64,000 nt of DNA from NCBI GenBank assembly GCA_017303335.1, contig JAFLBK010000001.1:811001-875000 (forward strand), given 5' to 3'. The position numbers were made by a program, and so were the translations under genes. Positions 43,347-58,618 of this stretch are shown here, one piece after another; position 1 is the first letter of the stretch, and each line of letters opens with the position of its first letter. Source of the DNA: Chitinophagales bacterium. GTDB lineage: Bacteria > Bacteroidota > Bacteroidia > Chitinophagales > Chitinophagaceae. The notes beneath the pieces were generated by a model. That model was not told the origin of the DNA, did not search any database, and was given only the letters and a program-made list of their open reading frames with translations.

Positions 43347-43369
43347 AAGCGGAATCCTTTATTCCGCTT
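43347..43369 (-). terminator. Intrinsic terminator of the interrupted tRNA gene
   Basis: AAGCGGAAT (43347-43355) pairs perfectly with ATTCCGCTT (43361-43369) around a five-base loop and is followed on the minus strand by a T run (48 down to 43). It sits one base after the tRNA 3' end and now has no intact tRNA upstream. Confidence 0.7.
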
Positions 43370-43370
43370 G

Positions 43371-43414
43371 TGGGCCCACCTGGGCTCGAACCAGGGACCC
43401 TCTGATTATGAGTC
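43371..43414 (-). tRNA. 3' half of a tRNA with CAT anticodon, left attachment site
   Basis: On the minus strand the sequence gives anticodon loop CTCATAA, a TCAGA anticodon 3' strand, a full T-arm (CCTGG TTCGAGC CCAGG) and the acceptor 3' strand TGGGCCCA. The 5' half is missing: the bases before the anticodon loop do not pair beyond two positions. This is the junction where the element inserted; an intact copy should exist at its right end. The CAT anticodon could be tRNA-Met or tRNA-Ile(CAU). Confidence 0.85.
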
Positions 43415-43744: not shown

Positions 43745-43765
43745 TTTTGTAAATTGGATTCTGCA

Positions 43766-45028
43766 ATGAATACAAACATCGTCATATCACTTGATACCCG
43801 GCGGTCAAAGAAGGACGGCTCATATCCGCTTGTCATGCGGCTTGGTCACAATGAGAGAACGACCTCGATCCCCCTTAATATCAGCCTGCTTGAAAAGGAC
43901 TGGAACGAAAACGAGAGGGTCGTAAAAAACACATACAAGGGTACAAATTCCGTTACCTGGGTGAATAACCGCATTCAGAAGAGTAAAGCGGATGCGATGG
44001 ATATTATCCTTAAACTTAATGAGGCCGGAAAACTTGACGGCTTATCTGTGGTTGAACTCCGTGATAAAATAGTAAAGAAAAACAATGAAGCTTCATTTTT
44101 TGAGTATGCAAAAGAGATAATAAAAGACCTTAAATCAGCTAACCGGATCGGAACTGCCCGGTCATATCAGGATGTTTTTAATGTCCTCAGCAACTTCAAT
44201 GACAAAAAGGACTTATCCTTCAAAGATGTAAATTATAAGTTCCTTATTAAACTGGAAGGGACGCATTTGGGGAAGGGGAACTCCTATAATGGTCTTGCTG
44301 TTTATATGCGAACCATCCGGGCAATCTTCAACAAGGCTGTAAAGGCTGGCGTTGTTGAGAAAGAGTTTTACCCGTTTGCAGACTATAAAATTAAGACCGT
44401 TCCCACTGAAAAGCGGGCTTTGGAAATTGATTTGCTGAAAGCAATCATTACTAAAAACCTTCCCCAAAATCATAAATGCTTTAATGCCCGGAATTACTTT
44501 GTCGCCAGCTATATGATGTACGGCATGAATTTTACCGACATGGCTTTTTTGAAGAAATCAGATATTGTTGACGGACGCATTCAATACCGCCGCCGCAAGA
44601 CAAGCAAGCTGTACGATATTAAGATCACGGACAATCTTAAAACTATTCTGGACTTCTATATTGCCAAAAACCCGGACAGTGAGTTTGTATTTCCTATTTT
44701 AAAAAGGGAAGGGCTGGCTAATCAATTCAGAGACATTGAATGGGATCGGAAGCGGTACAATAAGAAGCTAAGGGTATTGGCAGGGCTTTGTGGTATCGAA
44801 CAGAACCTGACCAGCTATGTAAGCCGACATTCTTTTGCAACCCAGGCAATGCTTCAACAAGTGCCTTTGAATGCGATTAGTTCAATGCTTGGGCATTCAA
44901 GTTTGAAGACAACGGAAATCTACCTTAAAAGCCTTCCGAACAATATCCTTGATGATTATAACGATAAGATTTTGCTTGCATCCAAAGACACTAAGAAAAC
45001 AAAATCAAAAGCACCTGCTAAAAAGTGA
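43766..45028 (+). CDS. Tyrosine recombinase (integrase)
   Basis: From ATG at 43766 the 420-residue protein has the Bacteroidota integrase plan: an N-terminal arm-binding domain (VISLDTRRSKKDGSYPLVMRLGHNERTTSIPL), a SAM-like core-binding domain (about 110-210) and a catalytic domain with SRHSFAT, LGHSSLKTTEIYL and the nucleophile Tyr in that last motif. The position of the first catalytic Arg reads YGMNFTDMA, with no Arg, as is known for some Bacteroidota recombinases such as IntDOT. An in-frame TTG at 43754 is a less likely start. Its position next to the tRNA junction marks it as the element's integrase. Confidence 0.93.
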   Translation: MNTNIVISLDTRRSKKDGSYPLVMRLGHNERTTSIPLNISLLEKDWNENERVVKNTYKGTNSVTWVNNRIQKSKADAMDIILKLNEAGKLDGLSVVELRDKIVKKNNEASFFEYAKEIIKDLKSANRIGTARSYQDVFNVLSNFNDKKDLSFKDVNYKFLIKLEGTHLGKGNSYNGLAVYMRTIRAIFNKAVKAGVVEKEFYPFADYKIKTVPTEKRALEIDLLKAIITKNLPQNHKCFNARNYFVASYMMYGMNFTDMAFLKKSDIVDGRIQYRRRKTSKLYDIKITDNLKTILDFYIAKNPDSEFVFPILKREGLANQFRDIEWDRKRYNKKLRVLAGLCGIEQNLTSYVSRHSFATQAMLQQVPLNAISSMLGHSSLKTTEIYLKSLPNNILDDYNDKILLASKDTKKTKSKAPAKK

Positions 45029-45290: not shown

Positions 45291-45303
45291 TACTATGAGT
45301 TCC
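45289..45303. promoter_or_regulatory. Operator-like site 2 overlapping the AbiEi start codon
   Basis: GGTACTATGAGTTCC repeats site 1 with two changes and contains the start codon ATG (45295). A repressor bound here would cover the -7 box and the transcription start. Confidence 0.45.
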
Positions 45304-46077
45304 GAAAACACATCAAAAATAAACCAATTACTCAGTTCACAACCTCCGGGCGTAGTGATGCAATCTTTTTGGTTAGCGGAGCAGGGGTATAGCCTCGACC
45401 TTCAGAAACGCTACAAGAAGAGCAAATGGCTACAATCCATAGGTACAGGGGCGTTAATACGTGCCGGGGATCAGGTTGGATATGAAGGCGCAATCTATGC
45501 CTTACAACGAGAGAGTGGCTCTACGGTGCATCCAGGGGGCAAGACGGCAATGGCTTTTCTGGGCATGTCCCACTATTTAGAGCTTTCGCCGCAAAGCGTC
45601 ACAGTTTTTGGCGGTAAAACTGAAAACCTTCCTCAATGGTTCAAAAAACATGATTGGGGAACAAAAGTTAATTATTACAAGACATCATTCTTACCGTCCG
45701 ACATGGGTTTGACAGAAAAAGAACTCAAAAATTTTTCGATCAAAATATCGAATGCACCGAGGGCACTCATGGAGTGTTTATACCTTGTACCGGATGAACA
45801 AGACCTGATGGAATGTTTTCATCTCATGGAAAGCATGAACAATATCAGGCCGACTCTTGTTCAGGGATTGCTTGAAAAATGCGAGTCAATAAAAGTGAAA
45901 CGTTTGTTTCTCTATCTTGCTGAAAAAGTAAAACATGATTGGTTCACCCGCCTTGATCTTGAAAAAATAGATTTAGGAAAGGGTAAAAGAAGCATCATAA
46001 AAAATGGTGCTTATAATTCAAAGTATCAAATAACCGTATCAAAAGAACTCGAACAAGATGATCAAAGAAGAATATAA
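45295..46077 (+). CDS. AbiEi-type antitoxin/transcriptional regulator
   Basis: The 260-residue protein has an N-terminal winged-helix region (VVMQSFWLAEQGYSLDLQKRYKKSKWLQSIGTGALIRAG) and the AbiEi C-terminal domain with AIYALQRESGSTVHPGGKTAMAFLG and FSIKISNAPRALMECLYLVPDE. AbiEi is the antitoxin of the type IV toxin-antitoxin system AbiE and represses its own promoter. Two operator-like sites and a promoter lie upstream. The gene overlaps the toxin gene by 20 bases, as expected for a coupled pair. AbiE systems give phage resistance and stabilise mobile elements. Confidence 0.9.
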   Translation: MSSENTSKINQLLSSQPPGVVMQSFWLAEQGYSLDLQKRYKKSKWLQSIGTGALIRAGDQVGYEGAIYALQRESGSTVHPGGKTAMAFLGMSHYLELSPQSVTVFGGKTENLPQWFKKHDWGTKVNYYKTSFLPSDMGLTEKELKNFSIKISNAPRALMECLYLVPDEQDLMECFHLMESMNNIRPTLVQGLLEKCESIKVKRLFLYLAEKVKHDWFTRLDLEKIDLGKGKRSIIKNGAYNSKYQITVSKELEQDDQRRI

Positions 46078-46981
46078 AAAACAGGTGCAGCTTTTATTGG
46101 CTGTGATGCCGGAGGTAGTAAAAGAAGATTGCTTTGCGCTTCACGGTGGGACGGCTATTAACCTGTTCATCCGCAACATGCCCAGGCTTTCAGTTGATAT
46201 TGACCTCACCTATTTACCATTAGAAGATTTTGAAACATCGCGTGTGAATATCAATGCTGCCCTGCAAAGAATAATGGGCAACGTTAAAAAAGTATTACCT
46301 GATGTAAAGATTACTTACGAGGAAAAAAATTCCAAGCTTTATATCAATGCTAAAGGCGTTCTCGTAAAAGTGGAAGTAAACCTAACAGGAAGGGGTAGCC
46401 TTCATGCTCCTGTAATGATGGACTTGTGCCAAAAGGCGCAGGAAGAATTTGACGCTTTTGTAAGTATGAGGCTTCTGCCGCAGGGTCAAATATTCGGAAG
46501 TAAGATATGTGCTGCATTAGACAGGCAGCATCCAAGAGATTTGTTTGATGTAGATTACCTTCTAAAAAATGAGGGAATAACAAAAGAAGTAAAAGAAGGG
46601 TTTCTGTTTTATTTGTTAGGACATGGCAGACCAATTAATGAAGTACTTGCACCAAATTGGAAAGATCAGACACAGGCAATGGAAACGCAGTTTGCAGGAA
46701 TGTCCGTTGACAATTTTACTTATGAAGATTACGAGCAAACAAGAGTTGCACTGCTAAAAGCACTTCATGAAACTTTGACTGATGAGGATAGGAATTTCCT
46801 GTTAAGTCTCAAAAACCTTGCACCTGACTGGACAGTATATGATTTTGAACGTTTTCCCGGTATCGCCTGGAAACTGGAGAACTTGCAAAAGTTAAAAGAC
46901 AACAATCCAGAAAAACACGCAAAGCTGTTTGAAGCGTTGAAACAAAAACTGTATCCACCACCTGCAGAATCCCAAACTTGA
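46058..46981 (+). CDS. AbiEii-type nucleotidyltransferase toxin
   Basis: The 307-residue protein carries the DUF1814/AbiEii nucleotidyltransferase motif: ALHGGTAINLFIRNMPRLSVDIDLTYL, where GG-x-T and the D-x-D (DID) pair are the expected catalytic residues, followed by KLYINAKGVLVKVEVN with the third acidic position. In characterised AbiE systems this toxin transfers nucleotides to tRNA or other targets and stops growth. It overlaps the AbiEi gene and ends 49 bases before the LytTR-like gene. Confidence 0.9.
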   Translation: MIKEEYKKQVQLLLAVMPEVVKEDCFALHGGTAINLFIRNMPRLSVDIDLTYLPLEDFETSRVNINAALQRIMGNVKKVLPDVKITYEEKNSKLYINAKGVLVKVEVNLTGRGSLHAPVMMDLCQKAQEEFDAFVSMRLLPQGQIFGSKICAALDRQHPRDLFDVDYLLKNEGITKEVKEGFLFYLLGHGRPINEVLAPNWKDQTQAMETQFAGMSVDNFTYEDYEQTRVALLKALHETLTDEDRNFLLSLKNLAPDWTVYDFERFPGIAWKLENLQKLKDNNPEKHAKLFEALKQKLYPPPAESQT

Positions 46982-47030
46982 TAAGTGATATGAACTTATA
47001 CCTTAGCGTTTAATTTAATCACCATTGATA

Positions 47031-47657
47031 ATGACTAATTGCGAGGAAGAATTAAGGCTTGCTAAAGAGCGAATAAAGATGCTTGAAGAAAACGAGATAG
47101 ATTTCTCGTTACGGCTGTGGTTAGCGTTAGAAGACATTCTCGAAAAAGACAAAGGCTTCTACCATCCCGACAATTTAGAACTCAGCGTGTTTGACAATGA
47201 CTTTGAAGTTAACAGGACAATTGCAATAAGCCCAAAGGATTTAATTTGTGTTATCACAGACAAAAACCAAGACGTAAAAGGAAATAACAGGAGAAAAAAA
47301 CAGCTTTTCGTTAAAGATGTTTCTGTAGGTAGCGATAACAAGGTCAGAACATACACCCTAAATAACAATGCTTTGAACTTTAAAAAGCTTTGCAATCAGC
47401 TTGACCCACTATCCCATTTTTTAATTGTTGTCTCAAAAAATTCTATAGTTAATGTGAAATTCTATGACCAAATCCAAAACTATGAATTAAAAGTGAACCT
47501 GACTGATGAACTTCCAGAGGCAGTAAAAACAATTGCCGTTTCAGATTCCAAAATCCACCGTGAAAATTTCACTAAAATTAAAGAGGCGTACAATTACAGG
47601 GTTTTGTTACAAAAAAAGGTAATTGGTTACAAGTATTCGATAGGCATTGACGGGTAA
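47031..47657 (+). CDS. LytTR-like DNA-binding protein without receiver domain
   Basis: The first 40 residues form a short predicted coiled coil (CEEELRLAKERIKMLEENEIDF). Residues about 65-190 follow the LytTR domain: AISPKDLICVITDKN, KQLFVKDVSVG, YTLNNNALNFKKLCNQLDP, HFLIVVSKNSIVNVKFYDQI and IAVSDSKIHRENFTKI, which mirror the usual strand-helix order and the RxxIVN motif (here KNSIVN). No phospho-receiver is present. I selected ATG at 47031 over TTG at 47025. It is probably a transcription regulator; its target is unknown. It follows the AbiE pair and precedes a small ORF and terminator. Confidence 0.55.
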   Translation: MTNCEEELRLAKERIKMLEENEIDFSLRLWLALEDILEKDKGFYHPDNLELSVFDNDFEVNRTIAISPKDLICVITDKNQDVKGNNRRKKQLFVKDVSVGSDNKVRTYTLNNNALNFKKLCNQLDPLSHFLIVVSKNSIVNVKFYDQIQNYELKVNLTDELPEAVKTIAVSDSKIHRENFTKIKEAYNYRVLLQKKVIGYKYSIGIDG

Positions 47658-47845: not shown

Positions 47846-47850
47846 CCCAA

Positions 47851-47879
47851 AAGATGGCTGTAATTTCTACAGCCATCTT
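47851..47879. terminator. Bidirectional terminator between convergent gene sets
   Basis: AAGATGGCTGTA (47851-47862) pairs perfectly over 12 bases with 47868-47879 around a five-base loop, with T/A-rich sequence on both sides. It separates the plus-strand AbiE/LytTR group from the minus-strand defence operon. Confidence 0.85.
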
Positions 47880-47890
47880 TTATTTATGTA

Positions 47891-48556
47891 TTATAAATCT
47901 TTTCTTTTAATGTCTTTATCATAGCCCACTTGCCAAAAATACATATCCAACACCTTCATAACCGGATAATGCCTTTGTATCTTTTGTTGAATAAGTGTTT
48001 GGCATTTGTTTATTTCGGTTTTGTTGTCGTTTATAAAAGTAAAGAGTTCCTTTAATGAGTCGGCATTAAACTTCGAGTGCTTCAAACCAGCCTCATTCAG
48101 GCCATTTATAAAGTATCGGTCATAGGCCGGGACACAGGCAAAAGTACCTAAAAGTATCTTACTTATTAAAGTATCCGTAGGCGTAATTGGCTTCTGCAAT
48201 GCAGAGCCGCGAGTAAATAAAATATTGCTGTAATGAGTAGCTAACTTTTTTTGAATTTGCAAAATATGTGGAATTTTTTCAGGCGACATTTCTTGCTTAG
48301 AGCTGCATTTTAAAGGCAGATTTTCTTTTGAAAAAAGAATTTCAACAGCCCCTTGATGTATCAAATGGTTCTTTTGTAATAAGCCGCTTGACCCTCTATA
48401 CATACCCCAGCTTGCCAAATAAAAAGCCAATTCCAGGCAATGTTTATCGGTAGGGGTATCTCCTAAAAAAGCCTGATGACAATTATCCCATGACCTGTAT
48501 CTATGAAACGGATCGGAAGTAATTCCCAATAAGTATTTTTCAATGATGGGTATCAT
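47891..48556 (-). CDS. Conserved protein of unknown function, last gene of the defence-type operon
   Basis: The 221-residue protein is soluble and largely helical. The segments RYRSWDNCHQAF and AFYLASWGMYRGSSGLLQKNHLIH look like a conserved core: I recall related 'RSW...C...F' and 'ASWGMYRGSS' stretches in unannotated bacterial proteins, but no function. Its start is 17 bases downstream of the UDG-like gene, and it is on the same strand as the large helicase/methyltransferase genes, so it belongs to their operon. The bidirectional terminator lies just after it. Confidence 0.65.
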   Translation of the reverse strand: MIPIIEKYLLGITSDPFHRYRSWDNCHQAFLGDTPTDKHCLELAFYLASWGMYRGSSGLLQKNHLIHQGAVEILFSKENLPLKCSSKQEMSPEKIPHILQIQKKLATHYSNILFTRGSALQKPITPTDTLISKILLGTFACVPAYDRYFINGLNEAGLKHSKFNADSLKELFTFINDNKTEINKCQTLIQQKIQRHYPVMKVLDMYFWQVGYDKDIKRKDL

Positions 48557-48573
48557 TCAAAAAGTTGTTTAAA

Positions 48574-49224
48574 TCAATTTCTAATTATCTGCCCAAGTTT
48601 CGCTTTATCAATGCCGCCGCCATTTTGTGAAATGTCACCAATGTCGTTTAGAGTTTTTATAATTTTATTATCAATAAGAACTTTTGAAATAAGGTTTTCA
48701 AAGTTCTTTTTTACTCGTGCGTAGCGAAAAAAAGTTTTGATGTTTGCTGATTTTTTCTCTGCAATCGCTTTGATTTTTTTCTCAAAGAATGTCGGAACTG
48801 TCAAACTAACTAATTTTCGATACTGTGTTGTCGTCAGGCTACGATAGTTTATTGCAGTGTCGTATGGGTTAAGTGGAAAGGGTGAAATGTCTACAACCAA
48901 TAAACCAATTTCATTACAAACTTTAATAAAATCTTTTTTATCGGGTATGTGCCTGTTTAGTATGTCGCCCAAATCGCTACGATAGAAAAACTGAGAGTTG
49001 TTAATTTCTGGATTGTAGATATATTTTTTAGCTTTCCCCCAAAGCGGTGCTTCTGCAATCATTAAATAATTTACGACCTTAATTTGGTTAAGGTTATTAA
49101 GCCAAATTTTGTAAATGTCACTAAATGCCTTTTCTAGATAGATGCTGTCTTTGGCAAACTTGTCCGAAAGCCCATTTTGGTCATAGAAAGTTTTTAGGAA
49201 TATTTTATTTTCAACGTAGTTCAT
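48574..49224 (-). CDS. Protein resembling the uracil-DNA-glycosylase fold
   Basis: The 216-residue protein contains YLMIAEAPLWGK near residue 53, followed by an N...FFYRSDLG stretch and later LLVVDISPFPLNPYD. This order resembles UDG-superfamily proteins, where a GEAPG-type loop is followed by an aromatic pocket and an internal strand. The canonical catalytic Asp/His set is not evident. It lies 24 bases after the Res gene and 17 before the next. A role in recognising modified or damaged DNA within the defence operon is inference. Confidence 0.45.
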   Translation of the reverse strand: MNYVENKIFLKTFYDQNGLSDKFAKDSIYLEKAFSDIYKIWLNNLNQIKVVNYLMIAEAPLWGKAKKYIYNPEINNSQFFYRSDLGDILNRHIPDKKDFIKVCNEIGLLVVDISPFPLNPYDTAINYRSLTTTQYRKLVSLTVPTFFEKKIKAIAEKKSANIKTFFRYARVKKNFENLISKVLIDNKIIKTLNDIGDISQNGGGIDKAKLGQIIRN

Positions 49225-49248
49225 TTATGAAGGTTCTGTTGAATTCTC

Positions 49249-52200
49249 TTATCGTATTACAATGTCAATAATTTTTTGAATATAGGATTGACGTTGTTCT
49301 TTTTGAAACAAGACATGATTCTTATTAAAATCGTCCATACTTTCTTGACCTTTCCAATGTGTCAGTTCGGTGAAAGGGGTATTGGAAATAATGAAGGAGT
49401 TTAATTCGATATTAGGATCGTTTAATTTAGGTTGAATAGTTGTTTTGATAGACTTGTGTAATTGAATTTTAGGGTCTGTTAAACCTTGAATTTGTCTTAG
49501 TCCTTTAGGATCAACAAATGATACATACTGCTTATCGCCAATTACTAACCACAGAATAAAATCGGGAAAGAAATTATTTGCTTCAAAAAAACCAATTCCT
49601 TTTTTACTCATGTTGCGAAGTAGGTAAAATTGTTTGTCTTTGAAAAAATCTGCGTTGTTGTGGAAGTACAATTTAAGATCCTCAACCAGGTTCCGTTCCC
49701 CTATGTTTAAAGGTACTGGCTGAATCTTGATAACTTCTTCATATCGTCCTTTATCAATGTAGATTAATGGTTGATAAAGATGGAGCCCTGCATATAGAGC
49801 TTCAAAGTCTGTATCTATTTTGAAGTTTTCCTGAAATTCCTTCTTGCGAACAACTTCTTTAAGCTCTTTTATTTTTCCAATTAATCTGTCTTCGGTTTTC
49901 TTCACCAAAAAATTATACTCAGATTCAAAATTCGGGTTGTGAATATCTAGGATAGCAACTTCTATCTTATCACTATAAAACTTGCTCTTTTGATAATTAT
50001 AAAGCCTCTCAATAAATGATTTAAGCAAGGTAAGAGACAACTCATGCCATAGCTTTACTTTGCTGTAATCGCGTGGTTCAAGTTCGGTGGATGGAATTTG
50101 AAGCGTGTACCAATCCGGGCTTAATAAAATATCTTCTAATGCCTCAATTGATAAGTTTACGTTATACCAACTTCTTTCATTTTTGAACTTCTGAATTTCA
50201 AAATAAATTCTGTTCCAGTCTAAAAATGCTGTGTGAATGCGATCAAGTTTACCTTCTTCAATCGTTACAACGGTTGAGACATTTGTAAGTTTTGAACTTT
50301 TCAATACTTGCACTTTGGGATACCAATCTATTAAGACCGGTGGCACTTTTTCAGAAATAACAGCATCAACTAAAACATCACGTTTAAAGTTTGATCCGTC
50401 TTTAACCCGGATATATTTCAACTTCTTTTCTGATAAGTCAGTGATTGTTGGCAAAATATCAACGGTGATTTTTTCAAAGTCTGAGTCAGTAGGCAAGCCT
50501 TCTTCTTCCAGGTAGTCTTTAAACTGCTGCATGTAGTCAGCACGTAACCCAAAAATATTCAGGGTTTCAAGTATTGGTAAAACGCCTGGAATAAATGCAG
50601 GTCGCAAACTTGCATCTAAAGCTGTGCTGCGTTTGAGTGAGAACTTATACCCTTTTAAGCGAACGCCTCTTCCAAACAATTGAATGATTTCGGAGCCTTC
50701 GCCACGCCCAATATTCAATAAGCCCATTGTGCTAACTCGCCAACTACTCCAACCCTCGGAGAATTTCTTTGAGCCAATCAGTACATTTACTTTACTGCTC
50801 TTGCTATTGATGTCGTGGAAGAGGGATGTCGAAAAGTCTTTTTCATCTACCAACATCTTATGAGCTTCACAAATCTTCAATAGACCTTTATCGTCTCCAA
50901 CATTGATAACGCCAAAATAATCAGCGTTACCAATTCGTAAACCGATTTCACCATCTTGTCCTTTTAGGTTATCAATATGTAGTGACGCACCAGCGACTTC
51001 TGAGTTAAAGACTTCTTTTAATACGTCATGGAAAACAGCCTGTGCATTTTTTCCTGACTTGCGAATTTCTTTGAAGGCATTTCTAAAAATGGAGTGCCCG
51101 GTTTCGTTATTCAAACCATCTTTGGCATCCAGAAGTAATTTAATTCTCTCTATTGATTGGCGGTCGTCTTTTACAAAGGCTTCCAAAAACTTCAACACTT
51201 CGACAACATCAGAAGCAGTCTCTTTGCTGATGCTTTTGGTAACTTTTCCGCCAACAAAAATCGCCAGGGGTTTATCTATTAAGAATGGCTCAATCTCTTT
51301 CCCGTTTTCTTTAAATACCAACAATTGCTCATAGAACGAAAGGATACATGCTGTAAGGTAAAGCGAGACATATCCTTCCTGCCAATTTTGGTTAAGATTT
51401 AATATCTGGTAATCTTTACCGTATCCATCGTTGTAAAAATAACGGTAGGAGTAATCAAACAATGTGGCTTTGCCGTATTCATCAATCAATACTTTTTGTT
51501 TAGCACCTGACAAAGCGTGAACAGCCTGACCAAAGGTTGCAGAATATTCAAAGGAAAAACCTTCTTCGCATAAGCGATTTCTTTTGTCCTTCCATTCAGT
51601 ACCACCTGCGCCCCTGTGTCCTTCATCAACCAGAACTAAATTGTTTCCTTCAAAGGCTTCCACAGCCACCGTTTTATTTCCGCTTGTTTCTTCAAGTTTA
51701 TGAATGTCTATAATTTCAATTTTTTGTCCTACAAACAAGGCACCTCCGGTCTTATCAAACAATTCAGCTTCCATCCCTGACTGTGCAAATTCTTTCAAAT
51801 GCTGTTTTGATAAACCTTCATTGGGAGTAAGTACAATAATCCTGTTTAAGCCTTTCTCAATATTGTGCAATTTCAGATAATACCGATACTGCAAAATATT
51901 AATGTGCATAAGTAAGGTTTTGCCTGAGCCTGTTGCATTCCAATAGGCAAGTTTATTTAGATCGTTTGCAGATGAATCTAACCGAAATTCAGAAATAGAT
52001 TTAAAATCGTTTCCGTTTTTTCCATGATTGAATTCAAGAAATTTGTTTAATTCAGTTTGTAAAACAACAGGATCAGAAAAATATTTATCTAAATAAATCT
52101 CTGTAAACAGCAGGGCGATGTATTGGAAGTATTTCCATTTAATAGGTTCGTTTCTTTTCTCGGAAATAGCTTGTGTGTGAGAAAAAATGTTTTGATCGTA

Positions 52201-52401
52201 CTGCAACAACAATTCTTTGGGCAAATTTGCATTACTGTAAAATCTTGCAACTAATGCATGGTGGAAATGAGAAATATTGTTTTCATCATTTCCTTCAAGT
52301 GAGGAATCCTTTAAGTCCAAAGACAGAGTTTCCAAATCTGTTACGCCAAACAGATTTAAAATATATTTATTAAGTACGAGTGATGAACTGAGTTTTGCCA
52401 T
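49249..52401 (-). CDS. Type III Res-like helicase with C-terminal PD-(D/E)xK nuclease
   Basis: The 1,050-residue protein has a Walker A ATGSGKT at 156-162, DEGH Walker B at 259-262, and later helicase motifs including FSEGWSSWRVSTMGLLNIGRGEGSEIIQLFGRGVRLKG (motif V/VI region). Near the C-terminus FFPDFILWL has Asp947 and FVDPKG has Asp964-x-Lys966, the PD...(D/E)xK nuclease pattern of type III Res subunits. It would translocate on DNA and cut it when partnered with the methyltransferase encoded 12 bases upstream. It belongs to the minus-strand operon that begins with the XRE gene. AT-rich composition agrees with its neighbours on the element. Confidence 0.88.
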   Translation of the reverse strand: MAKLSSSLVLNKYILNLFGVTDLETLSLDLKDSSLEGNDENNISHFHHALVARFYSNANLPKELLLQYDQNIFSHTQAISEKRNEPIKWKYFQYIALLFTEIYLDKYFSDPVVLQTELNKFLEFNHGKNGNDFKSISEFRLDSSANDLNKLAYWNATGSGKTLLMHINILQYRYYLKLHNIEKGLNRIIVLTPNEGLSKQHLKEFAQSGMEAELFDKTGGALFVGQKIEIIDIHKLEETSGNKTVAVEAFEGNNLVLVDEGHRGAGGTEWKDKRNRLCEEGFSFEYSATFGQAVHALSGAKQKVLIDEYGKATLFDYSYRYFYNDGYGKDYQILNLNQNWQEGYVSLYLTACILSFYEQLLVFKENGKEIEPFLIDKPLAIFVGGKVTKSISKETASDVVEVLKFLEAFVKDDRQSIERIKLLLDAKDGLNNETGHSIFRNAFKEIRKSGKNAQAVFHDVLKEVFNSEVAGASLHIDNLKGQDGEIGLRIGNADYFGVINVGDDKGLLKICEAHKMLVDEKDFSTSLFHDINSKSSKVNVLIGSKKFSEGWSSWRVSTMGLLNIGRGEGSEIIQLFGRGVRLKGYKFSLKRSTALDASLRPAFIPGVLPILETLNIFGLRADYMQQFKDYLEEEGLPTDSDFEKITVDILPTITDLSEKKLKYIRVKDGSNFKRDVLVDAVISEKVPPVLIDWYPKVQVLKSSKLTNVSTVVTIEEGKLDRIHTAFLDWNRIYFEIQKFKNERSWYNVNLSIEALEDILLSPDWYTLQIPSTELEPRDYSKVKLWHELSLTLLKSFIERLYNYQKSKFYSDKIEVAILDIHNPNFESEYNFLVKKTEDRLIGKIKELKEVVRKKEFQENFKIDTDFEALYAGLHLYQPLIYIDKGRYEEVIKIQPVPLNIGERNLVEDLKLYFHNNADFFKDKQFYLLRNMSKKGIGFFEANNFFPDFILWLVIGDKQYVSFVDPKGLRQIQGLTDPKIQLHKSIKTTIQPKLNDPNIELNSFIISNTPFTELTHWKGQESMDDFNKNHVLFQKEQRQSYIQKIIDIVIR

Positions 52402-52413
52402 TTGCGTACTTAT

Positions 52414-55400
52414 TTAAATAGTTTCAAACATTTTTTTCTTAAACTCTTCCTCAATCAATACTACCTTCCATCGTTCATCACCTGTTTTCAGGTTTTCTAC
52501 ATTGTTATCGCCATTCACATAGATGCGGTCATACTCGCTGTCTAAAGGATTGTATTTACTCTTTTCAAGGAATTGGTTGAGAGCAGTGCTGTTGTGTTGT
52601 GTGCAATCACGCCAAACGACTAAAATACTTTCACCAGCAAGGTTTTTGCCTGTAACAACCACATATCCTTCTTTGGGTACGGCATAACTTTCTACTACCA
52701 GTCCAATCAGGTAGTTAAAAGTTTCTACTAAATCCACTTTTGTAGGCTGTAGTTCATTACTCTTGGTAATATTTAGGAAGCAGTTAAATGGATTTACAAA
52801 CCATTCTATATTGAGCAGACTACCCTGCGTTTCTACATCCAACATATAATCGAGCATATAGCCTTCTTTAAATGCTGGATTAATAGCTAAGGTCTGTTGC
52901 TGTATTTCAGATTGCTTCAGGGATAGGTTGTTGAGTGTATCTTCATAACTTTCTAAACGTATATATTTAAAGCAATGGCTAATACCTTCACGACTGATTG
53001 GTTTGCCTTCACTCCAATCTTTGCTGTATATCACTTTTTGAACTCTTGGTTTGGTTATACTGTCAAAGTATTCTCCCATTTCAACTAAGATAAACTTTCG
53101 ATTTCCCTGGTCGATGCGATTTAAATTAATAACAGCATGTCCTGTAGTTCCTGAACCGGAAAAATAGTCTAATACTAAGCCTTGTTTTTGTTTTAATCCG
53201 CTGATAAGCAAGGTGTCTTCAACTGCATAAATCGATTTAGGGTAGGAAAAATTATTAACAGGGAATAAATCTTTCAATGGTTTAGTCCCATGTTCAGTCG
53301 CTGAATATTTTGAGTCAGCCCAAAATGTAAGTGGCGTAACACCATCTTCATTTGGTCTGTACTTATAGTATATTTGAATGCCTTCGCTTTGTTTTTTTGC
53401 ATAGAATTGAGAATAATCTTTTTTTACATTTTCCCAACTCCAACGCCAATTCTTTTCAATTCCATCGTCATTAATTGGATAGATTACTTTTTCAGCATTA
53501 AGCGGTTTGTCAATGATACCCCAAAGTTCTGTATCGTCATTCCATTCCATTTCTGGAACTCTAAGGCTTAAACTTTCTTCATGAACATAAATTGGATACC
53601 ACTGCCTTTTGCCATCAGCCCTGTTTGAATTTGAGCCTTCCCTACGAAAATTCCTTTGTTCGTATAGCCCGTCTTTATCGGTCAGATTAAAACGCTTCTT
53701 TTGTTCATCCGACCTCTCAATTTTTATAATCTTAGAGGCTTGGGAATTTTTGACCATTATGGCATACTCATGCGATAATGCTAATCCGTCAGTTGTAGGT
53801 CTTCCGGATGGATTAATCCTAATTGCTACAACGCCAGCGATGTTTTCTCTTGTATAGATAGATTCTAATAAAAAGTGTAATTCTTTAACTTCAACATCAT
53901 CAATAGTTACTGTTTTAATTCCATCTTCTTTTAGAAAATCTCTGCCAAGCAGCAATCGGTCGTACATTAGGCAAAGCCAAGAAGAGTGCTTATAATTATT
54001 TTTATAAACTATTTCAGATGCACTTGTATTGTAAGGTGGGTCGATATAAATCGTGTTGGCTTGTTGAGAGTATCTATCTTTTATCAATCGTAGTGCTTGA
54101 TAGTTATCAGAATTAATCAATAGCGAATCACACTTTTGGTCAAACATTTCAATACTTGAAATTAATTTCCATTTAAAAATTTCGGTAAAGAAAGCCGTAT
54201 CTACTAACAAGAATTGATTTTGATTTAAAAACTCTGTTGTTAATGGATTTGTAAATCCAATAATTTCGTTTGAAAACAATCCACTAGCTTTTTGCTTTTT
54301 TATATTATCAATTGCAAACAGCTTTACCCACTCTTGTATCTGTGCCTGGTTGTTAAGTATTTCTGGGTATAGTTCTTTGGGAATACGATCAAGAGTAATG
54401 CAGTAATTGCATTCTACTACCATTTTCTTTTTCAGCCATAACTTCTTCTGAAAGTTTTCTAATTGCGCCAAGAAGGTGATAATTTTCTCACCAATTTTTT
54501 TAATGGCTTTTATCTTGCTCAGTTGTTTTAAAAACTCTTGTTCATCACGAGTGTTCAGGTCGTCAATAAACAGCACTTCATTTTTAATATAAAAATCGAG
54601 TTCACGTCCAAGAAAACCAGCCAAGTCTTTGTGTATAAAATAATCAAAAGTGTTACGGGCCGTGTAGTCTAACAAATGCTTCTGTAGCAGGGTGCGTTGT
54701 TTATCCTTTTCAGTAGGGCGCAAACTTAGCAGTTCAGTAAAGCCTTCTGGTATTTGTTTTTTAACTACATCAAAGGCAGTTTCAAGCAAATCACTTTGCT
54801 TTACTTTTTTATCTGTAGGCTCGTATGTGAAATATATTTTGAATTCATCAGCAACGGTTTCACAAACCTTATCCGAATAAATTGCAAATCGTCTTTCTTT
54901 ATCACCCTGCGACTTATTATTATTTTGTTCAGTGCTGGCTTCTATCAATTCAAAAGTCACTGTTTTTGCATTGCTTAGTTTAAAACGGTAAACTTTAAAA
55001 TACTCACTGGTTTTAATATAATATTGGTCAGCATTCGCCCAATGCAGTTTTACTTCTTCACCTTCGTAGGGAATGGCATATACGTCCTTTTTGTATCTGC
55101 GTATTGATATAAAATCACCATCATCGAAATAGCGTTTAAAGAAATTCGCCAGTAATGAGAAAACTTCATTTTCAATGCCAACCATATCCGCAGCTTCACC
55201 CAAGCGCTTTTTCAGGTCTTGAACTTTAGGCAAGGTGTTTGGATCGGCGCCTAAAGCTTGTGCCGATTTAATGGCTTCGTCTAATTCCTTTTGCAAAGAT
55301 TGTTTATCAACGGAAAGGCTTTCCGATAAAACCTTTTGCACTTGCGGCACTAAATCCACTTCCAAAAACTGTTCAATATCTTTTCGTTTTTGGTTCATGA

Positions 55401-55485
55401 TGCGGTAGATACCAAAATCAAGCTCTGCCTTATCGAGCATGAACACTTCTTTGAGTGTATTAATGAGTTTGTCGTAGTTTGTCAT
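52414..55485 (-). CDS. Type III-like site-specific DNA adenine methyltransferase, very long
   Basis: The 1,023-residue protein has DPPYNT (motif IV) at 482-487 and DYFSGSGTTGHA (motif I) at about 771-782, the order of beta-class N6-adenine methyltransferases such as type III Mod. The length exceeds classical Mod (about 600-650): some 450 residues before the catalytic core form a largely helical extension of unknown role (KEVFMLDKAELDFGIYRI at the start is common in such long versions). It would methylate adenine in a short sequence and, in a complex with Res, decide where to cut. It sits two bases after the SNF2 gene. Confidence 0.9.
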   Translation of the reverse strand: MTNYDKLINTLKEVFMLDKAELDFGIYRIMNQKRKDIEQFLEVDLVPQVQKVLSESLSVDKQSLQKELDEAIKSAQALGADPNTLPKVQDLKKRLGEAADMVGIENEVFSLLANFFKRYFDDGDFISIRRYKKDVYAIPYEGEEVKLHWANADQYYIKTSEYFKVYRFKLSNAKTVTFELIEASTEQNNNKSQGDKERRFAIYSDKVCETVADEFKIYFTYEPTDKKVKQSDLLETAFDVVKKQIPEGFTELLSLRPTEKDKQRTLLQKHLLDYTARNTFDYFIHKDLAGFLGRELDFYIKNEVLFIDDLNTRDEQEFLKQLSKIKAIKKIGEKIITFLAQLENFQKKLWLKKKMVVECNYCITLDRIPKELYPEILNNQAQIQEWVKLFAIDNIKKQKASGLFSNEIIGFTNPLTTEFLNQNQFLLVDTAFFTEIFKWKLISSIEMFDQKCDSLLINSDNYQALRLIKDRYSQQANTIYIDPPYNTSASEIVYKNNYKHSSWLCLMYDRLLLGRDFLKEDGIKTVTIDDVEVKELHFLLESIYTRENIAGVVAIRINPSGRPTTDGLALSHEYAIMVKNSQASKIIKIERSDEQKKRFNLTDKDGLYEQRNFRREGSNSNRADGKRQWYPIYVHEESLSLRVPEMEWNDDTELWGIIDKPLNAEKVIYPINDDGIEKNWRWSWENVKKDYSQFYAKKQSEGIQIYYKYRPNEDGVTPLTFWADSKYSATEHGTKPLKDLFPVNNFSYPKSIYAVEDTLLISGLKQKQGLVLDYFSGSGTTGHAVINLNRIDQGNRKFILVEMGEYFDSITKPRVQKVIYSKDWSEGKPISREGISHCFKYIRLESYEDTLNNLSLKQSEIQQQTLAINPAFKEGYMLDYMLDVETQGSLLNIEWFVNPFNCFLNITKSNELQPTKVDLVETFNYLIGLVVESYAVPKEGYVVVTGKNLAGESILVVWRDCTQHNSTALNQFLEKSKYNPLDSEYDRIYVNGDNNVENLKTGDERWKVVLIEEEFKKKMFETI

Positions 55486-55487
55486 GC

Positions 55488-58340
55488 TTATACTATTTTC
55501 CAGTTGATGGTAAATAAATGGGTCTTGCTTATTTCTTGCTTCATTCGTTTCTGAATATCAGCAATCATCTTGTCTCTCATTTCCGCGATTTCATCTTCCA
55601 CAATAAATATTTCCTGCCGCTGCTTTTTCTGTTTTCTTGATTCATCCTGTAATTGCTCTTGCATTTTTAGTAGTAAAACAGGGTCTGTTGTTTTTTGAGA
55701 TTCACGGTTTAGCTCTTTTATTTTAGCTTTGGTTTCTTTAATGGCTAATTCAGCAGCATTCATTCTATCCTCAGCCCATTTAGTTAGCTTCTCCGTCTCA
55801 AACTTCATGTAGTTACTGTCTTTTTCCGATAAGGATTTCAGTAAAGATTCTAAATAAGTCTCCCCCGTTTTACTCACTAATCCTTTATCAACTACATTTT
55901 CATTTTCATTTATATTAATACTTGGCAAAGTAAGCAATCTCTTAGCCTGGTCTTCGGTTAATTTGGTACCATTATTAGCAATGCCAAAGGCCATTAAGTA
56001 ATCCGAGGATTCAAATGAATCCACACTTACTGCCATTACACTTATCCAACCGCTTTGGCCTTTCAATTCGTCCAAAATAGCCACATTGCCTTGATAGTTT
56101 GTTAAGTCGAATGTTAGTGTCGATGGGGGTAGTTCCTTTGATTTTAATTTTTCTAAAACAGCTTGCGCCAAAGGATGTCCCATTCTGTAAACGTGGGCTT
56201 CGGTGTTTGGCTTTCCAAGTTTAAAGGGTTCCGTGGGAAAGCTTTCTTCCGGGTAAGGCTGTTTGGTGAGTTGAAAGCTTAAGTCCTTATTATTGAATTT
56301 TGCAGACCCATTCAATTCAAACTTAGTGACAGCCCACAACCATTGTTCGTATTTGTTGATGTATTCCTTGCTCTCGGAAAGTCTGATTTTTAATTTATCC
56401 AATACTTCATCATCGAAATTCGCCAATAGAGTTTCTCGTGTTGAAAGCATCTTATTACTGATCTGCTCGTCTAATTCCTTTTGCAGCAAGTCAAACTGAT
56501 CAATAATTTCCTTTTCAGTTCTGTATTTTTGATAAATCTCAGCAATGCGTTTTTCAAAGTCTACCCCTGATTCAATGCTACCTAATACATCATCGCTTGC
56601 ACCAAAAACACCGCTAAATAATTTGAATTTTTCATCGAGCAATTGAAAAACACGAATGTCAGCGGCATTTTTTACGTTCAAAAAATTTACGACAACGACA
56701 TCAAACTTTTGTCCGTAGCGATGGCAACGACCAATGCGCTGTTCTATACGTTGAGGATTCCAGGGTAAGTCGAAATTAATAAGCAAAGAGCAAAATTGTA
56801 AATTGATGCCTTCCGCAGCAGCTTCTGTTGCGATCATAATAGTTGCATCGTTTCTAAAATGCTCAACCAGTGCTGCTCTTTTGTCAGCGGTTGGAGAACC
56901 AGTTACTTTATCGGTGCCTTTATTCTGGCTTAACCATGTTTTATAAACTTTGTTAGATGTTTCGTCAGTGTTTGAGCCGTTAAACAATACTATTTTATTC
57001 GGATAATATTCATTCAATAAATTGAATAAATAATTTTGTGTTCTTGTAGACTCAGTAAAAATAATAGCCTTTTGGTTTGCTTGCTTATCCATTTTAGCAA
57101 AGCCTTCTTTCAAGGCTGTCAATAATTTATCACCTTTAGTATTGTGCTTAATGGATTCGGCTAAATCTCTGTATTTTTCTAGCTCAGCTATTTCTTGGCG
57201 AATGGATTCAAAATCCGCTTCAGTTAGCTTATCATCTTCTGTTACTTGTTCTTCATCCCATTCCTCGGCTTGCTCATCAAGCAATTCATAGTCTTCAGAA
57301 ATATCTTCTGATACATCCACTCTTTCATTATCTTGAATTACCTGATTTAATTTTTTGATTAAGCTATTTAATGTTCCAGCAATAGCGAATGATGAAGAGG
57401 CTAGAAGCTTTCTCAAAATCAAAGTCATTAAATGTCTTTGACCTGCTGGCAAAGCATATAATAATTCTCTTTGCAGATAGTCACTTACATCTTCATAAAG
57501 TTTTTGTTCGTTTTCTGATGGCTCAAACTTTATTGTAATGGGAATTCTATTGGTATAACGAATATATTCCTGAACTTGTCTGCGAAGGTTGCGAATGCAA
57601 ATAGATTTTAGCCTATCTCTTAAATCCTGGTAATTTTCTCCATCGACAGTTCTGAGGAACTGGCTTCTAAAACTTTTTATGTCGCCAAAAGTATGTTCAT
57701 CAATAATGCTTACTAAGCCGTATAACTCAAGTAAGGAGTTTTGAAGAGGTGTAGCTGTAAGTAAAGCTTTTCTTGAATGCGATAACGCTTCTTTTATTGC
57801 ATTACCAATTTTGTTTGTAGGTTTATAAACATTGCGTAAGCGATGTGCTTCATCAATTACAGCCAAATCCCAAGAAACTAATTGCATTAAATCAGCTTTG
57901 GCTCTTGCAAACTGATAAGAGCAGATAACTATTTTGTCCTGCTCAAACGGGTTTTTGTTACCCGACTTCTTGAAGTCATTAAAATTTTTATTTTCTAAAA
58001 TAGTTGAATCGAGAAAAAACTTTTCTTGTAATTCCTGACTCCATTGTTTGCGCAAATTCGCCGGGCAAATAATTAAGAGTTTTTTTCTGCGTTCAGCCCA
58101 TAATTGAGATAGTAAAATACCGGCCTCGATGGTTTTTCCCAGCCCAACTTCGTCTGCTAGGATCGCACCTTTAGAAAGGGGAGATTTGAATGCAAAGAGT
58201 GCAGCTTCTACCTGATGAGGGTTTAAATCAACCTGTGCGTCCATCAATGCGACGTTAAACTTCTCGCTACTCCCCGAAGGAAATCGCCTTGTAAGTTCAT
58301 AAGCAATATATTTTGCCTGGTATGGTGTCAAATCTGTCAC
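55488..58340 (-). CDS. SNF2/RapA-family helicase of the restriction-like operon
   Basis: The 950-residue protein shows SNF2 motifs: DEVGLGKT (63-70, Walker A), DEAH (163-166), TATPLQNS (motif III), and EQRIGRCHRYGQ (motif VI, about residue 540). An acidic insert of about 50 residues (near 345-395, rich in Asp/Glu) separates the two lobes. The C-terminal third has long coiled-coil-like stretches. SNF2 proteins remodel or translocate on DNA; related ones occur in DISARM class 1 and other defence loci. The start overlaps the XRE stop by four bases, and the methyltransferase follows after two, so the three are tightly coupled. Confidence 0.9.
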   Translation of the reverse strand: MTDLTPYQAKYIAYELTRRFPSGSSEKFNVALMDAQVDLNPHQVEAALFAFKSPLSKGAILADEVGLGKTIEAGILLSQLWAERRKKLLIICPANLRKQWSQELQEKFFLDSTILENKNFNDFKKSGNKNPFEQDKIVICSYQFARAKADLMQLVSWDLAVIDEAHRLRNVYKPTNKIGNAIKEALSHSRKALLTATPLQNSLLELYGLVSIIDEHTFGDIKSFRSQFLRTVDGENYQDLRDRLKSICIRNLRRQVQEYIRYTNRIPITIKFEPSENEQKLYEDVSDYLQRELLYALPAGQRHLMTLILRKLLASSSFAIAGTLNSLIKKLNQVIQDNERVDVSEDISEDYELLDEQAEEWDEEQVTEDDKLTEADFESIRQEIAELEKYRDLAESIKHNTKGDKLLTALKEGFAKMDKQANQKAIIFTESTRTQNYLFNLLNEYYPNKIVLFNGSNTDETSNKVYKTWLSQNKGTDKVTGSPTADKRAALVEHFRNDATIMIATEAAAEGINLQFCSLLINFDLPWNPQRIEQRIGRCHRYGQKFDVVVVNFLNVKNAADIRVFQLLDEKFKLFSGVFGASDDVLGSIESGVDFEKRIAEIYQKYRTEKEIIDQFDLLQKELDEQISNKMLSTRETLLANFDDEVLDKLKIRLSESKEYINKYEQWLWAVTKFELNGSAKFNNKDLSFQLTKQPYPEESFPTEPFKLGKPNTEAHVYRMGHPLAQAVLEKLKSKELPPSTLTFDLTNYQGNVAILDELKGQSGWISVMAVSVDSFESSDYLMAFGIANNGTKLTEDQAKRLLTLPSININENENVVDKGLVSKTGETYLESLLKSLSEKDSNYMKFETEKLTKWAEDRMNAAELAIKETKAKIKELNRESQKTTDPVLLLKMQEQLQDESRKQKKQRQEIFIVEDEIAEMRDKMIADIQKRMKQEISKTHLFTINWKIV

Positions 58341-58618
58341 TTTTTTATCACTTTATTTAACGCCATTTCTAAGGCTTGCACTGAATGTTTTTCATTCTCT
58401 ACTAACTGTAATATTTTATCTGCTAACCAAATAGGCACGAGTTCATTTTCGGGAACACCATAAAGCTTTGATAGTTTTGTCAGGTGAATTCGGCTTACTG
58501 GTTTTTCGTTATGCTCCATTTTGCTGATATATGCAGTGTCCACTTGTAAATCAGCCGCAACTTGTCTTTGGACAAGTCCCTTTGCTTCTCTTAATTTTTT
58601 CAGTTTTTCACCGAGCAT
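58337..58618 (-). CDS. XRE-family regulator heading the defence operon
   Basis: The 93-residue protein is a single XRE helix-turn-helix domain (KLKKLREAKGLVQRQVAADLQVDTAYISKMEHNEKPVS) followed by a short tail. It is likely an autorepressor of the six-gene operon, similar to the C-proteins of restriction systems, which delay endonuclease until methylation is established. An inverted repeat that overlaps the putative promoter lies 20-35 bases upstream of its start. The gene overlaps the SNF2 gene. Confidence 0.9.
   Translation of the reverse strand: MLGEKLKKLREAKGLVQRQVAADLQVDTAYISKMEHNEKPVSRIHLTKLSKLYGVPENELVPIWLADKILQLVENEKHSVQALEMALNKVIKK

What the first reader, a model, noticed from the sequence alone, without database searches (positions are those of the whole stretch)
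47891..58618. Six-gene restriction-like operon: XRE, SNF2 helicase, long type III Mod, Res nuclease-helicase, UDG-like protein, unknown protein
All six minus-strand genes are separated by at most 24 bases or overlap, and an XRE regulator heads them. A plain type III system has only Mod and Res. DISARM has drmA/drmB/drmC, and BREX has pglZ and brxC; none of these is present. An SNF2 helicase fused by operon to a Mod-Res pair plus a UDG-like and an unknown protein is a distinct arrangement that looks like a defence system on a mobile element.
Basis: partly seen in the sequence, partly recalled or inferred. Interest (0 to 1): 0.8.

Follow-up and report, generated by a model that had tools for sequence, protein, structure and literature searches.

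The report
Type III restriction system plus SNF2
A mobile element in this Bacteroidota genome carries a DNA restriction system in which the usual pair of type III genes is preceded by a third, motor-protein gene; that trio recurs in at least thirteen bacterial phyla and on plasmids, while the last two genes of the reported six-gene operon are passengers found in no related locus.

Summary
The six genes are real and at the stated coordinates: all on the minus strand, four gaps of 2-24 bp and one 4-bp overlap, with a strong terminator-like hairpin only after the last. The six-gene set is not the unit. I fetched 80 relatives of the SNF2 gene from other genomes. Of 53 with 9 kb or more downstream, 51 carry a type III Mod and a Res on the same strand; none of the 80 carries the 'UDG-like' or the unknown gene. 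The conserved core is SNF2 > Mod > Res (60 complete loci, 13 named phyla, also conjugative plasmids), sometimes headed by an XRE gene. Co-directional cargo genes of defence type often sit between the core genes (41 of 60). One SNF2 clade serves three type III Mod-Res families: SNF2 proteins 85% identical can have essentially unalignable Res partners. Within the window's subfamily, Mod residues ~450-800 are swapped between close relatives. The SNF2 is RapA-like over its full length but lacks RapA's N-terminal domain; it fails both NCBI DrmD cut-offs, and drmA/B/C are absent. The 'UDG' label found no support. Best reading: a three-subunit type III-like restriction-modification system on a ~32-kb integrative element at tRNA-Met. 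I found no paper naming it.

The parts
58337..58618 (-). XRE-family (HTH_3) regulator, 93 aa, 4-bp overlap with SNF2; optional head of the operon
   Evidence: ORF; HTH_3 6.8e-11; homologue directly upstream of SNF2 in 12 of 75 loci
55488..58340 (-). SNF2/RapA-like dsDNA translocase-type ATPase, 950 aa, GTG start, no nuclease domain; core gene 1
   Evidence: Pfam SNF2-rel_dom 8.3e-40; NCBIfam DrmD_b 688 bits against cut-off 950; motifs I, II, III and VI intact in 80/80 relatives; AF2 model pLDDT 77.8 matches RapA over residues 4-950
52414..55485 (-). Type III Mod methyltransferase, 1023 aa (long subfamily, class A), DPPY at aa 482 and FSGSGTT at 775; core gene 2; aa ~450-800 is an exchangeable specificity segment
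   Evidence: PADLOC MTase_III PDLC03646 1.9e-229; PDB relatives EcoP15I Mod, Mbo45V, 6k0w; segment swap; motifs
49249..52401 (-). Type III Res: SF2 helicase plus C-terminal PD-(D/E)xK nuclease, 1050 aa; core gene 3
   Evidence: PADLOC REase_III PDLC03654 1.3e-214; ResIII 5.7e-10; motifs in 15/15 relatives
48574..49224 (-).
   Evidence: no family at E<0.01; no PDB match; found only in the window's own genome in two searches of 345 and 249 genomes and in none of the related loci
47891..48556 (-). 221-aa protein of unknown function with conserved FYLASWGMxRGSS; rare family, cargo, not core
   Evidence: homologues in 2 of 394 other genomes, neither next to restriction genes in the stretches read; no Pfam hit
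47848..47882 (-). terminator-like hairpin after the last gene (16-pair stem, also reads on the + strand)
43754..45028 (+). tyrosine recombinase (integrase) of the carrying element
   Evidence: Phage_integrase 1.1e-13, Phage_int_SAM_5 1.8e-20
43369..43400 (.). left attachment repeat (32 bp, tRNA-Met 3' end); identical copy at contig position corresponding to window coordinate 75602-75633, at an intact tRNA-Met

Best explanation
The functional core is a three-subunit, type III-like restriction-modification system: Mod recognises a short site and methylates self DNA (adenine is likely but not shown); Res, a helicase plus PD-(D/E)xK nuclease guided by Mod, cuts unmethylated invading DNA; and the RapA-like SNF2 protein is a dedicated ATP-driven dsDNA motor that works with, but is not specific to, a given Mod-Res pair. 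Shown here: family identity, intact motifs, the fixed gene order SNF2 > Mod > Res, exchange of the whole Mod-Res pair under a conserved SNF2, exchange of the Mod specificity segment, the mobile carrier, and variable cargo inside the operon. Inferred: restriction of phage or plasmid DNA. More weakly inferred: that SNF2 acts as an accessory translocase which clears or remodels proteins on the target DNA, or recycles stalled Res/Mod complexes, so that cleavage is completed. Because it accompanies three very different Res families, its job is probably common to all of them (acting on DNA or on the blocked complex) rather than a subunit-specific fit. The two last genes are co-transcribed cargo.
For: Of 53 related loci with >=9 kb downstream, 51 have both Mod and Res after SNF2. 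There are 60 complete loci in 13 named phyla, with empty-slot gaps mostly under 50 bp. Type III HMM hits and motifs. SNF2 tree: three Mod-Res classes need at least 6 changes of label; L019 and L020 have SNF2 85% identical but Mod 32% and Res alignable over only 81 aa. Mod aa ~450-800 falls to about 20-40% between systems otherwise mostly 75-95% identical; L013 v L008: SNF2 97%, Res 98%, Mod 76%. The class A Res tree needs 3 changes of SNF2 presence, read as one gain and two losses. RapA match over residues 4-950, 730 aligned, rmsd 4.2, with RapA 1-122 missing. Same order on plasmids, several of them conjugative.
Against: About half of class A Mod-Res pairs in the phylum lack the SNF2 (10 with, 12 without, 3 at contig ends), and two sublineages appear to have lost it, so SNF2 is not strictly required for Mod-Res. 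No activity has been tested here. The role of SNF2 rests on fold and genetics only.
Confidence: 0.72

Rival explanations
1. SNF2 is a separate defence effector or a chaperone-like neighbour that merely rides next to ordinary two-subunit type III systems, as one more item of a defence island.
For: Mod-Res pairs of the same families occur without SNF2; Mod-Res pairs are exchanged under SNF2, as expected for independent modules; other defence genes also sit in the operon.
Against: In this SNF2 clade the partnership is nearly invariant in order, orientation and (where no cargo intervenes) short spacing (51/53), while true cargo varies from locus to locus; three different Mod-Res families appear always in the same position.
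Confidence: 0.2
2. It is a divergent DISARM: SNF2 = DrmD, Mod = DrmM, with Res replacing DrmA.
For: The best PADLOC and NCBIfam match of SNF2 is DrmD (684 and 688 bits).
Against: It fails both NCBIfam DrmD cut-offs (688<950, 285<610), there is no drmB/drmC hit and no better-than-DrmD drmA hit in the operon, and no DUF1998/MZB domain anywhere in the genome. Mod and Res are classical type III families.
Confidence: 0.03
3. All six genes form one system in which a base-excision (UDG-like) activity of the fifth gene adds an abasic-site step to restriction.
For: Tight spacing and no strong terminator between Res and the last two genes.
Against: The last two genes are absent from all related loci; there is no homology support for UDG; the fifth gene has no detectable relative in the genomes searched.
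Confidence: 0.04

Closest known systems
Type III restriction-modification (EcoP15I, EcoP1I, Mbo45V)
   Same: Mod with DPPY and FxGSGTT in the order DPPY-TRD-FxG, Res with SF2 helicase plus PD-(D/E)xK nuclease, adjacent genes; class B partners match PADLOC models of about EcoP15I size
   Different: A third core gene, a RapA-like SNF2, precedes Mod; Mod is about 1020 aa with a ~440-aa N-terminal extension in class A; cargo genes are often inserted between core genes
DISARM class 1 (DrmD + DrmMI + DrmABC)
   Same: SNF2 protein closest to DrmD among named families; a methyltransferase next to it
   Different: No DrmA/DrmB/DrmC; a type III Res is present instead; SNF2 below both NCBIfam DrmD cut-offs
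RapA, RNA polymerase recycling ATPase
   Same: Full-length domain order from the SNF2 core to the C-terminus
   Different: Lacks RapA residues 1-122, the N-terminal domain; encoded with Mod and Res
CglI / NgoAVII three-gene restriction systems (PMC4267653, PMC5737866)
   Same: Methyltransferase, nuclease and a separate helicase-like ATPase gene
   Different: There the nuclease depends on the separate ATPase for its motor; here Res has its own helicase and the extra ATPase is SNF2/RapA-like
Hma / BREX-related systems (PMC8565338, PMC12839542)
   Same: SNF2 helicase plus methyltransferase in one operon; embedded GmrSD-like genes reported
   Different: No DUF499 ATPase and no nuclease fused to the SNF2 here; Res is type III
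GmrSD-type genes embedded in a type I RM operon (TgvAB, PMC11411939)
   Same: Defence cargo embedded co-directionally within a restriction operon
   Different: Host operon here is SNF2-Mod-Res; cargo is more varied (AAA_21+DUF4276, YhcG/DUF1016, Schlafen-like, AIPR)

Membership tests
Type III restriction-modification | Mod subunit of a type III family with intact catalytic motifs | tested here: met
   MTase_III 762 bits; DPPY 482, FSGSGTT 775; phmmer match to EcoP15I Mod 3e-25
Type III restriction-modification | Res subunit with SF2 helicase and PD-(D/E)xK nuclease | tested here: met
   REase_III 713 bits; GSGKT, DEGH, QLFGRG, PDF...DPK
Type III restriction-modification | only two subunits, Mod and Res | tested here: inconclusive
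   A conserved third gene, SNF2, precedes Mod in this lineage and is lost in some sublineages. Whether it is a physical subunit of the enzyme is untested
Type III restriction-modification | methylation of one strand and cleavage 25-27 bp from the site, needing two sites | not testable with these tools
   needs SMRT sequencing and cleavage assays
DISARM | DrmA, DrmB and DrmC present | tested here: not met
   PADLOC scan of all six proteins: only the SNF2 hits Drm models, best DrmD; no MZB/DUF1998 (PF09369) in the whole genome
DISARM | DrmD above curated cut-off | tested here: not met
   688 against 950 and 285 against 610 bits
BREX | PglZ and BrxC in the operon | tested here: not met
   no such hit among the operon proteins
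Hma / BREX-related | DUF499 ATPase (HmaC) with SNF2 and methyltransferase | tested here: not met
   no such protein in the operon
RapA | N-terminal RNA-polymerase-contacting domain | tested here: not met
   the alignment begins at RapA residue 122-123 with model residue 3-4; that this domain contacts RNA polymerase is from memory
Uracil-DNA glycosylase superfamily (fifth gene) | detectable UDG domain by profile or fold | tested here: inconclusive
   no Pfam, PHROGs or PDB hit; AF2 model unusable, pLDDT 38.9

The most novel reading that the evidence does not exclude
A RapA-like SNF2 motor is a general third subunit of a large branch of type III restriction systems: it coordinates or completes restriction for interchangeable Mod-Res cassettes of three very different families, and the operon doubles as a receptacle for embedded defence genes, so that specificity, nuclease and cargo are swapped while the motor stays constant.
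Probability: 0.45. Interest if true: 0.72.

Novelty: new variant of a known kind. Interest (0 to 1): 0.52.

Why it matters
Scanners that look for Mod + Res would call these loci plain type III, and SNF2 would be reported as DrmD or RapA (annotations on plasmids do the latter). If the SNF2 is a working part, a common class of restriction system has a missing subunit in its textbook description, and experiments with Mod-Res alone would miss it. The swapping of whole Mod-Res pairs under one SNF2 makes a direct test possible: does the same SNF2 support restriction by unrelated type III enzymes? The operon's internal slots are also a place to look for new defence genes. A compact copy without cargo lies on an E. 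coli plasmid, so a tractable laboratory host is at hand.

Tried and rejected
UDG identity of gene 5: Pfam to E 10, PHROGs, PDB phmmer, AF2 single sequence, IMG/VR scan, plasmids, two whole-genome searches; nothing. Gene 6: one PHROG match of unknown function at 8e-4 and two distant homologues without restriction neighbours in the stretches read; the PDB nanobody matches are weak (E 0.017 or worse) and not credible. DISARM, BREX and Hma membership: rejected on missing defining genes. First guess that ~990-aa genes upstream of some SNF2-free Mods were divergent SNF2s: rejected; by reading the sequences they are a ribonucleotide reductase-like protein and NACHT-like proteins with a C-terminal FGE-like domain. 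My first motif patterns for Mod motif I and ResC Walker A were wrong and were corrected. XRE as an obligatory head: rejected, 12 of 75. P. intermedia Pin17FIII with an upstream SNF2 (PMC5608340) is described as a type IIG system, not this. Literature: nine searches found no paper naming the trio; a Cronobacter integrative element lists Res, Mod and SNF2 among cargo without linking them (PMC12757443). bioRxiv and most subscription papers were not searchable, so absence of a name is not proof.
Full report
OBSERVATION. The six ORFs are at the stated coordinates on the minus strand with 2-24 bp gaps and one 4-bp overlap. HMM scans give HTH_3, SNF2-rel_dom, type III Mod (PADLOC PDLC03646, 762 bits), type III Res (PDLC03654, 713 bits) and no family for the last two proteins. 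The strong minus-strand terminator-like hairpin follows the last gene, so co-transcription of all six is plausible.

IS THE SIX-GENE SET THE UNIT? No. Using an alignment of three SNF2 proteins as the probe, I fetched 80 loci from species-level genomes (peptide patterns KYE[QT]WLW and [LI]TPY[QH]AKY, so the sample is this SNF2 clade, 45-90% identical). Profiles built from the loci show Mod and Res downstream on the same strand in 51 of 53 loci with at least 9 kb of downstream sequence. None of these loci encodes the 216-aa or the 221-aa protein. The XRE head occurs in 12 of 75. Sixty loci hold all three core genes, in 13 named phyla. Empty-slot spacings are mostly below 50 bp.

THREE TYPE III FAMILIES, ONE SNF2. 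The partners fall into three classes: A (Mod ~1020 aa / Res ~1050 aa, PDLC03646/03654, the window), B (PDLC03634/03647) and C (PDLC03636/03648). My Mod profile labelled 'ModB' covers both B and C; the class is set by Res. On the SNF2 tree the three labels need at least 6 changes, where 2 would be the minimum. Direct pairs: L019 and L020 have SNF2 85% identical, yet Mod 32% and Res alignable only over 81 residues; L040 and L051 have SNF2 80%, Mod 28%, Res alignable over 107 residues. The Mod-Res pair has therefore been replaced under a conserved SNF2, repeatedly.

SPECIFICITY SWAPPING. Within the window's subfamily, Mod residues ~450-800, containing DPPY, the presumed target recognition domain and FSGSGTT, drop to about 20-40% identity between systems whose flanks and SNF2/Res are otherwise mostly 75-95% identical. 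L013 v L008: SNF2 97%, Res 98%, Mod 76%. This is what is expected for a working system that changes its recognition site.

CONVERSE. In 395 genomes of the phylum, 25 class A Mod genes were found. With up to about 20 kb around each, 10 have SNF2 directly upstream, 12 do not and 3 are undecided at contig ends. On the Res tree the SNF2 association needs 3 changes, read here as one gain and two losses (quick trees, unrooted, some long branches). So SNF2 of this clade goes with Mod-Res nearly always, while Mod-Res can do without SNF2.

CARGO SLOTS. In 34 of 60 loci genes lie between SNF2 and Mod, in 22 of 60 between Mod and Res; both slots are empty in 19. The 104 inserted ORFs of 100 aa or more that I collected are co-directional with the core; only five opposite-strand ORFs of that size were seen in these intervals. 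Pfam and PADLOC tallies: AAA_15/AAA_21 ATPases, DUF4276, YhcG/DUF1016 (PDC-S02), Schlafen AlbA_2 with HATPase_c_4, GmrSD_N, DUF3696, AIPR, PHP, PLDc. In the window both internal slots are empty and the two unknown genes follow Res; 12 of 45 testable loci have some co-directional gene within 60 bp after Res. Cargo embedded in restriction operons is known (TgvAB, PMC11411939, which also cites earlier work on embedded defences).

PLASMIDS. The same order is on plasmids of Salmonella, Escherichia, Aeromonas, Rhizobium and Deinococcus, several of them conjugative; Klebsiella plasmids carry both the SNF2 and the long Mod at neighbouring positions. The E. coli plasmid pEC316_2 carries HTH-SNF2-Mod-Res with no cargo; two of 5,426 complete E. 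coli genomes hold it in full.

STRUCTURE OF SNF2. AF2 with 57 sequences gives pLDDT 77.8. RapA ranks first in Foldseek, and VIA-align covers residues 4-950 of the model with RapA 123-966, 730 aligned, rmsd 4.2, Z 20.9. RapA's N-terminal domain is missing. SNF2-core-only matches have similar or higher Z, so the core by itself is not diagnostic; the full-length cover is. No nuclease domain was detected.

THE LAST TWO GENES. The 216-aa protein has no relative in two sets of 345 and 249 genomes, in plasmids or in IMG/VR by the tools used, no UDG hit and no usable model. The stretch YLMIAEAPLWGKAKKYIYNP may have prompted the UDG reading; it is a by-eye resemblance only. The 221-aa protein belongs to a rare family (FYLASWGMxRGSS) with homologues outside restriction loci.

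MOBILE ELEMENT. A perfect 32-bp repeat at 43369-43400 and at window-equivalent 75602-75633 is the 3' part of a tRNA-Met that is intact at the right end. GC is 0.32-0.45 inside and 0.46-0.50 in the adjacent flanks. Inside are an integrase, AbiEi/AbiEii, a TraG-like coupling protein, a protein that reads like a TrwC-type relaxase (by sequence, not scanned against Pfam), and a Gabija-type GajA/GajB pair. This is a ~32-kb integrative element, probably mobilisable.

MECHANISM. Shown: families, motifs, order, swapping, carrier. Established knowledge: type III Mod methylates one strand of a short asymmetric site, and Res needs Mod and ATP to cleave unmethylated DNA. Inferred: the SNF2 is a dsDNA motor that helps restriction by very different Res enzymes, most likely by clearing or remodelling what sits on the DNA, or by resetting stalled complexes. 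Confidence in a three-gene restriction system about 0.72; in this particular role of SNF2 about 0.35-0.4.

NOVELTY. Nine literature searches found no named system. The trio appears unremarked in PMC12757443. PADLOC profiles would call Mod-Res type III and SNF2 DrmD. I class it as a new variant of a known kind.

Noticed in passing
window 43369-43400 and contig position equivalent to window 75602-75633 (L136:12703-12734): 32-bp direct repeat of the tRNA-Met 3' end bounds a ~32-kb integrative element; intact tRNA-Met at the right end, its 3' part at the left.
   Followed up: yes
L136:8758-12559 (window-equivalent 71657-75458, beyond the window): The same element carries a Gabija-type GajA (653 bits) and GajB (496 bits) pair.
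   Followed up: partly
window 45295-46981: AbiEi/AbiEii type IV toxin-antitoxin pair next to the integrase.
   Followed up: partly
L136:7536-8732: A second integrase-like gene (398 aa) inside the element, next to the Gabija genes: possibly a nested element.
   Followed up: no
L125, L126, L130: In SNF2-free class A loci, a 992-995 aa NACHT-like protein with a C-terminal FGE-like domain (read by eye) sits upstream of Mod, where SNF2 stands in relatives.
   Followed up: partly
L005:1200-9476: Downstream of SNF2-Mod-Res in a Chitinophaga pinensis MAG locus: a 369-aa protein, a 1633-aa protein that looks like a large ATPase and a 751-aa helicase-like protein, all co-directional; possible further defence genes.
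   Followed up: no
window 47025-47657: 210-aa gene convergent to the operon, no family in Pfam or PADLOC; shares the bidirectional hairpin at 47849-47881.
   Followed up: no
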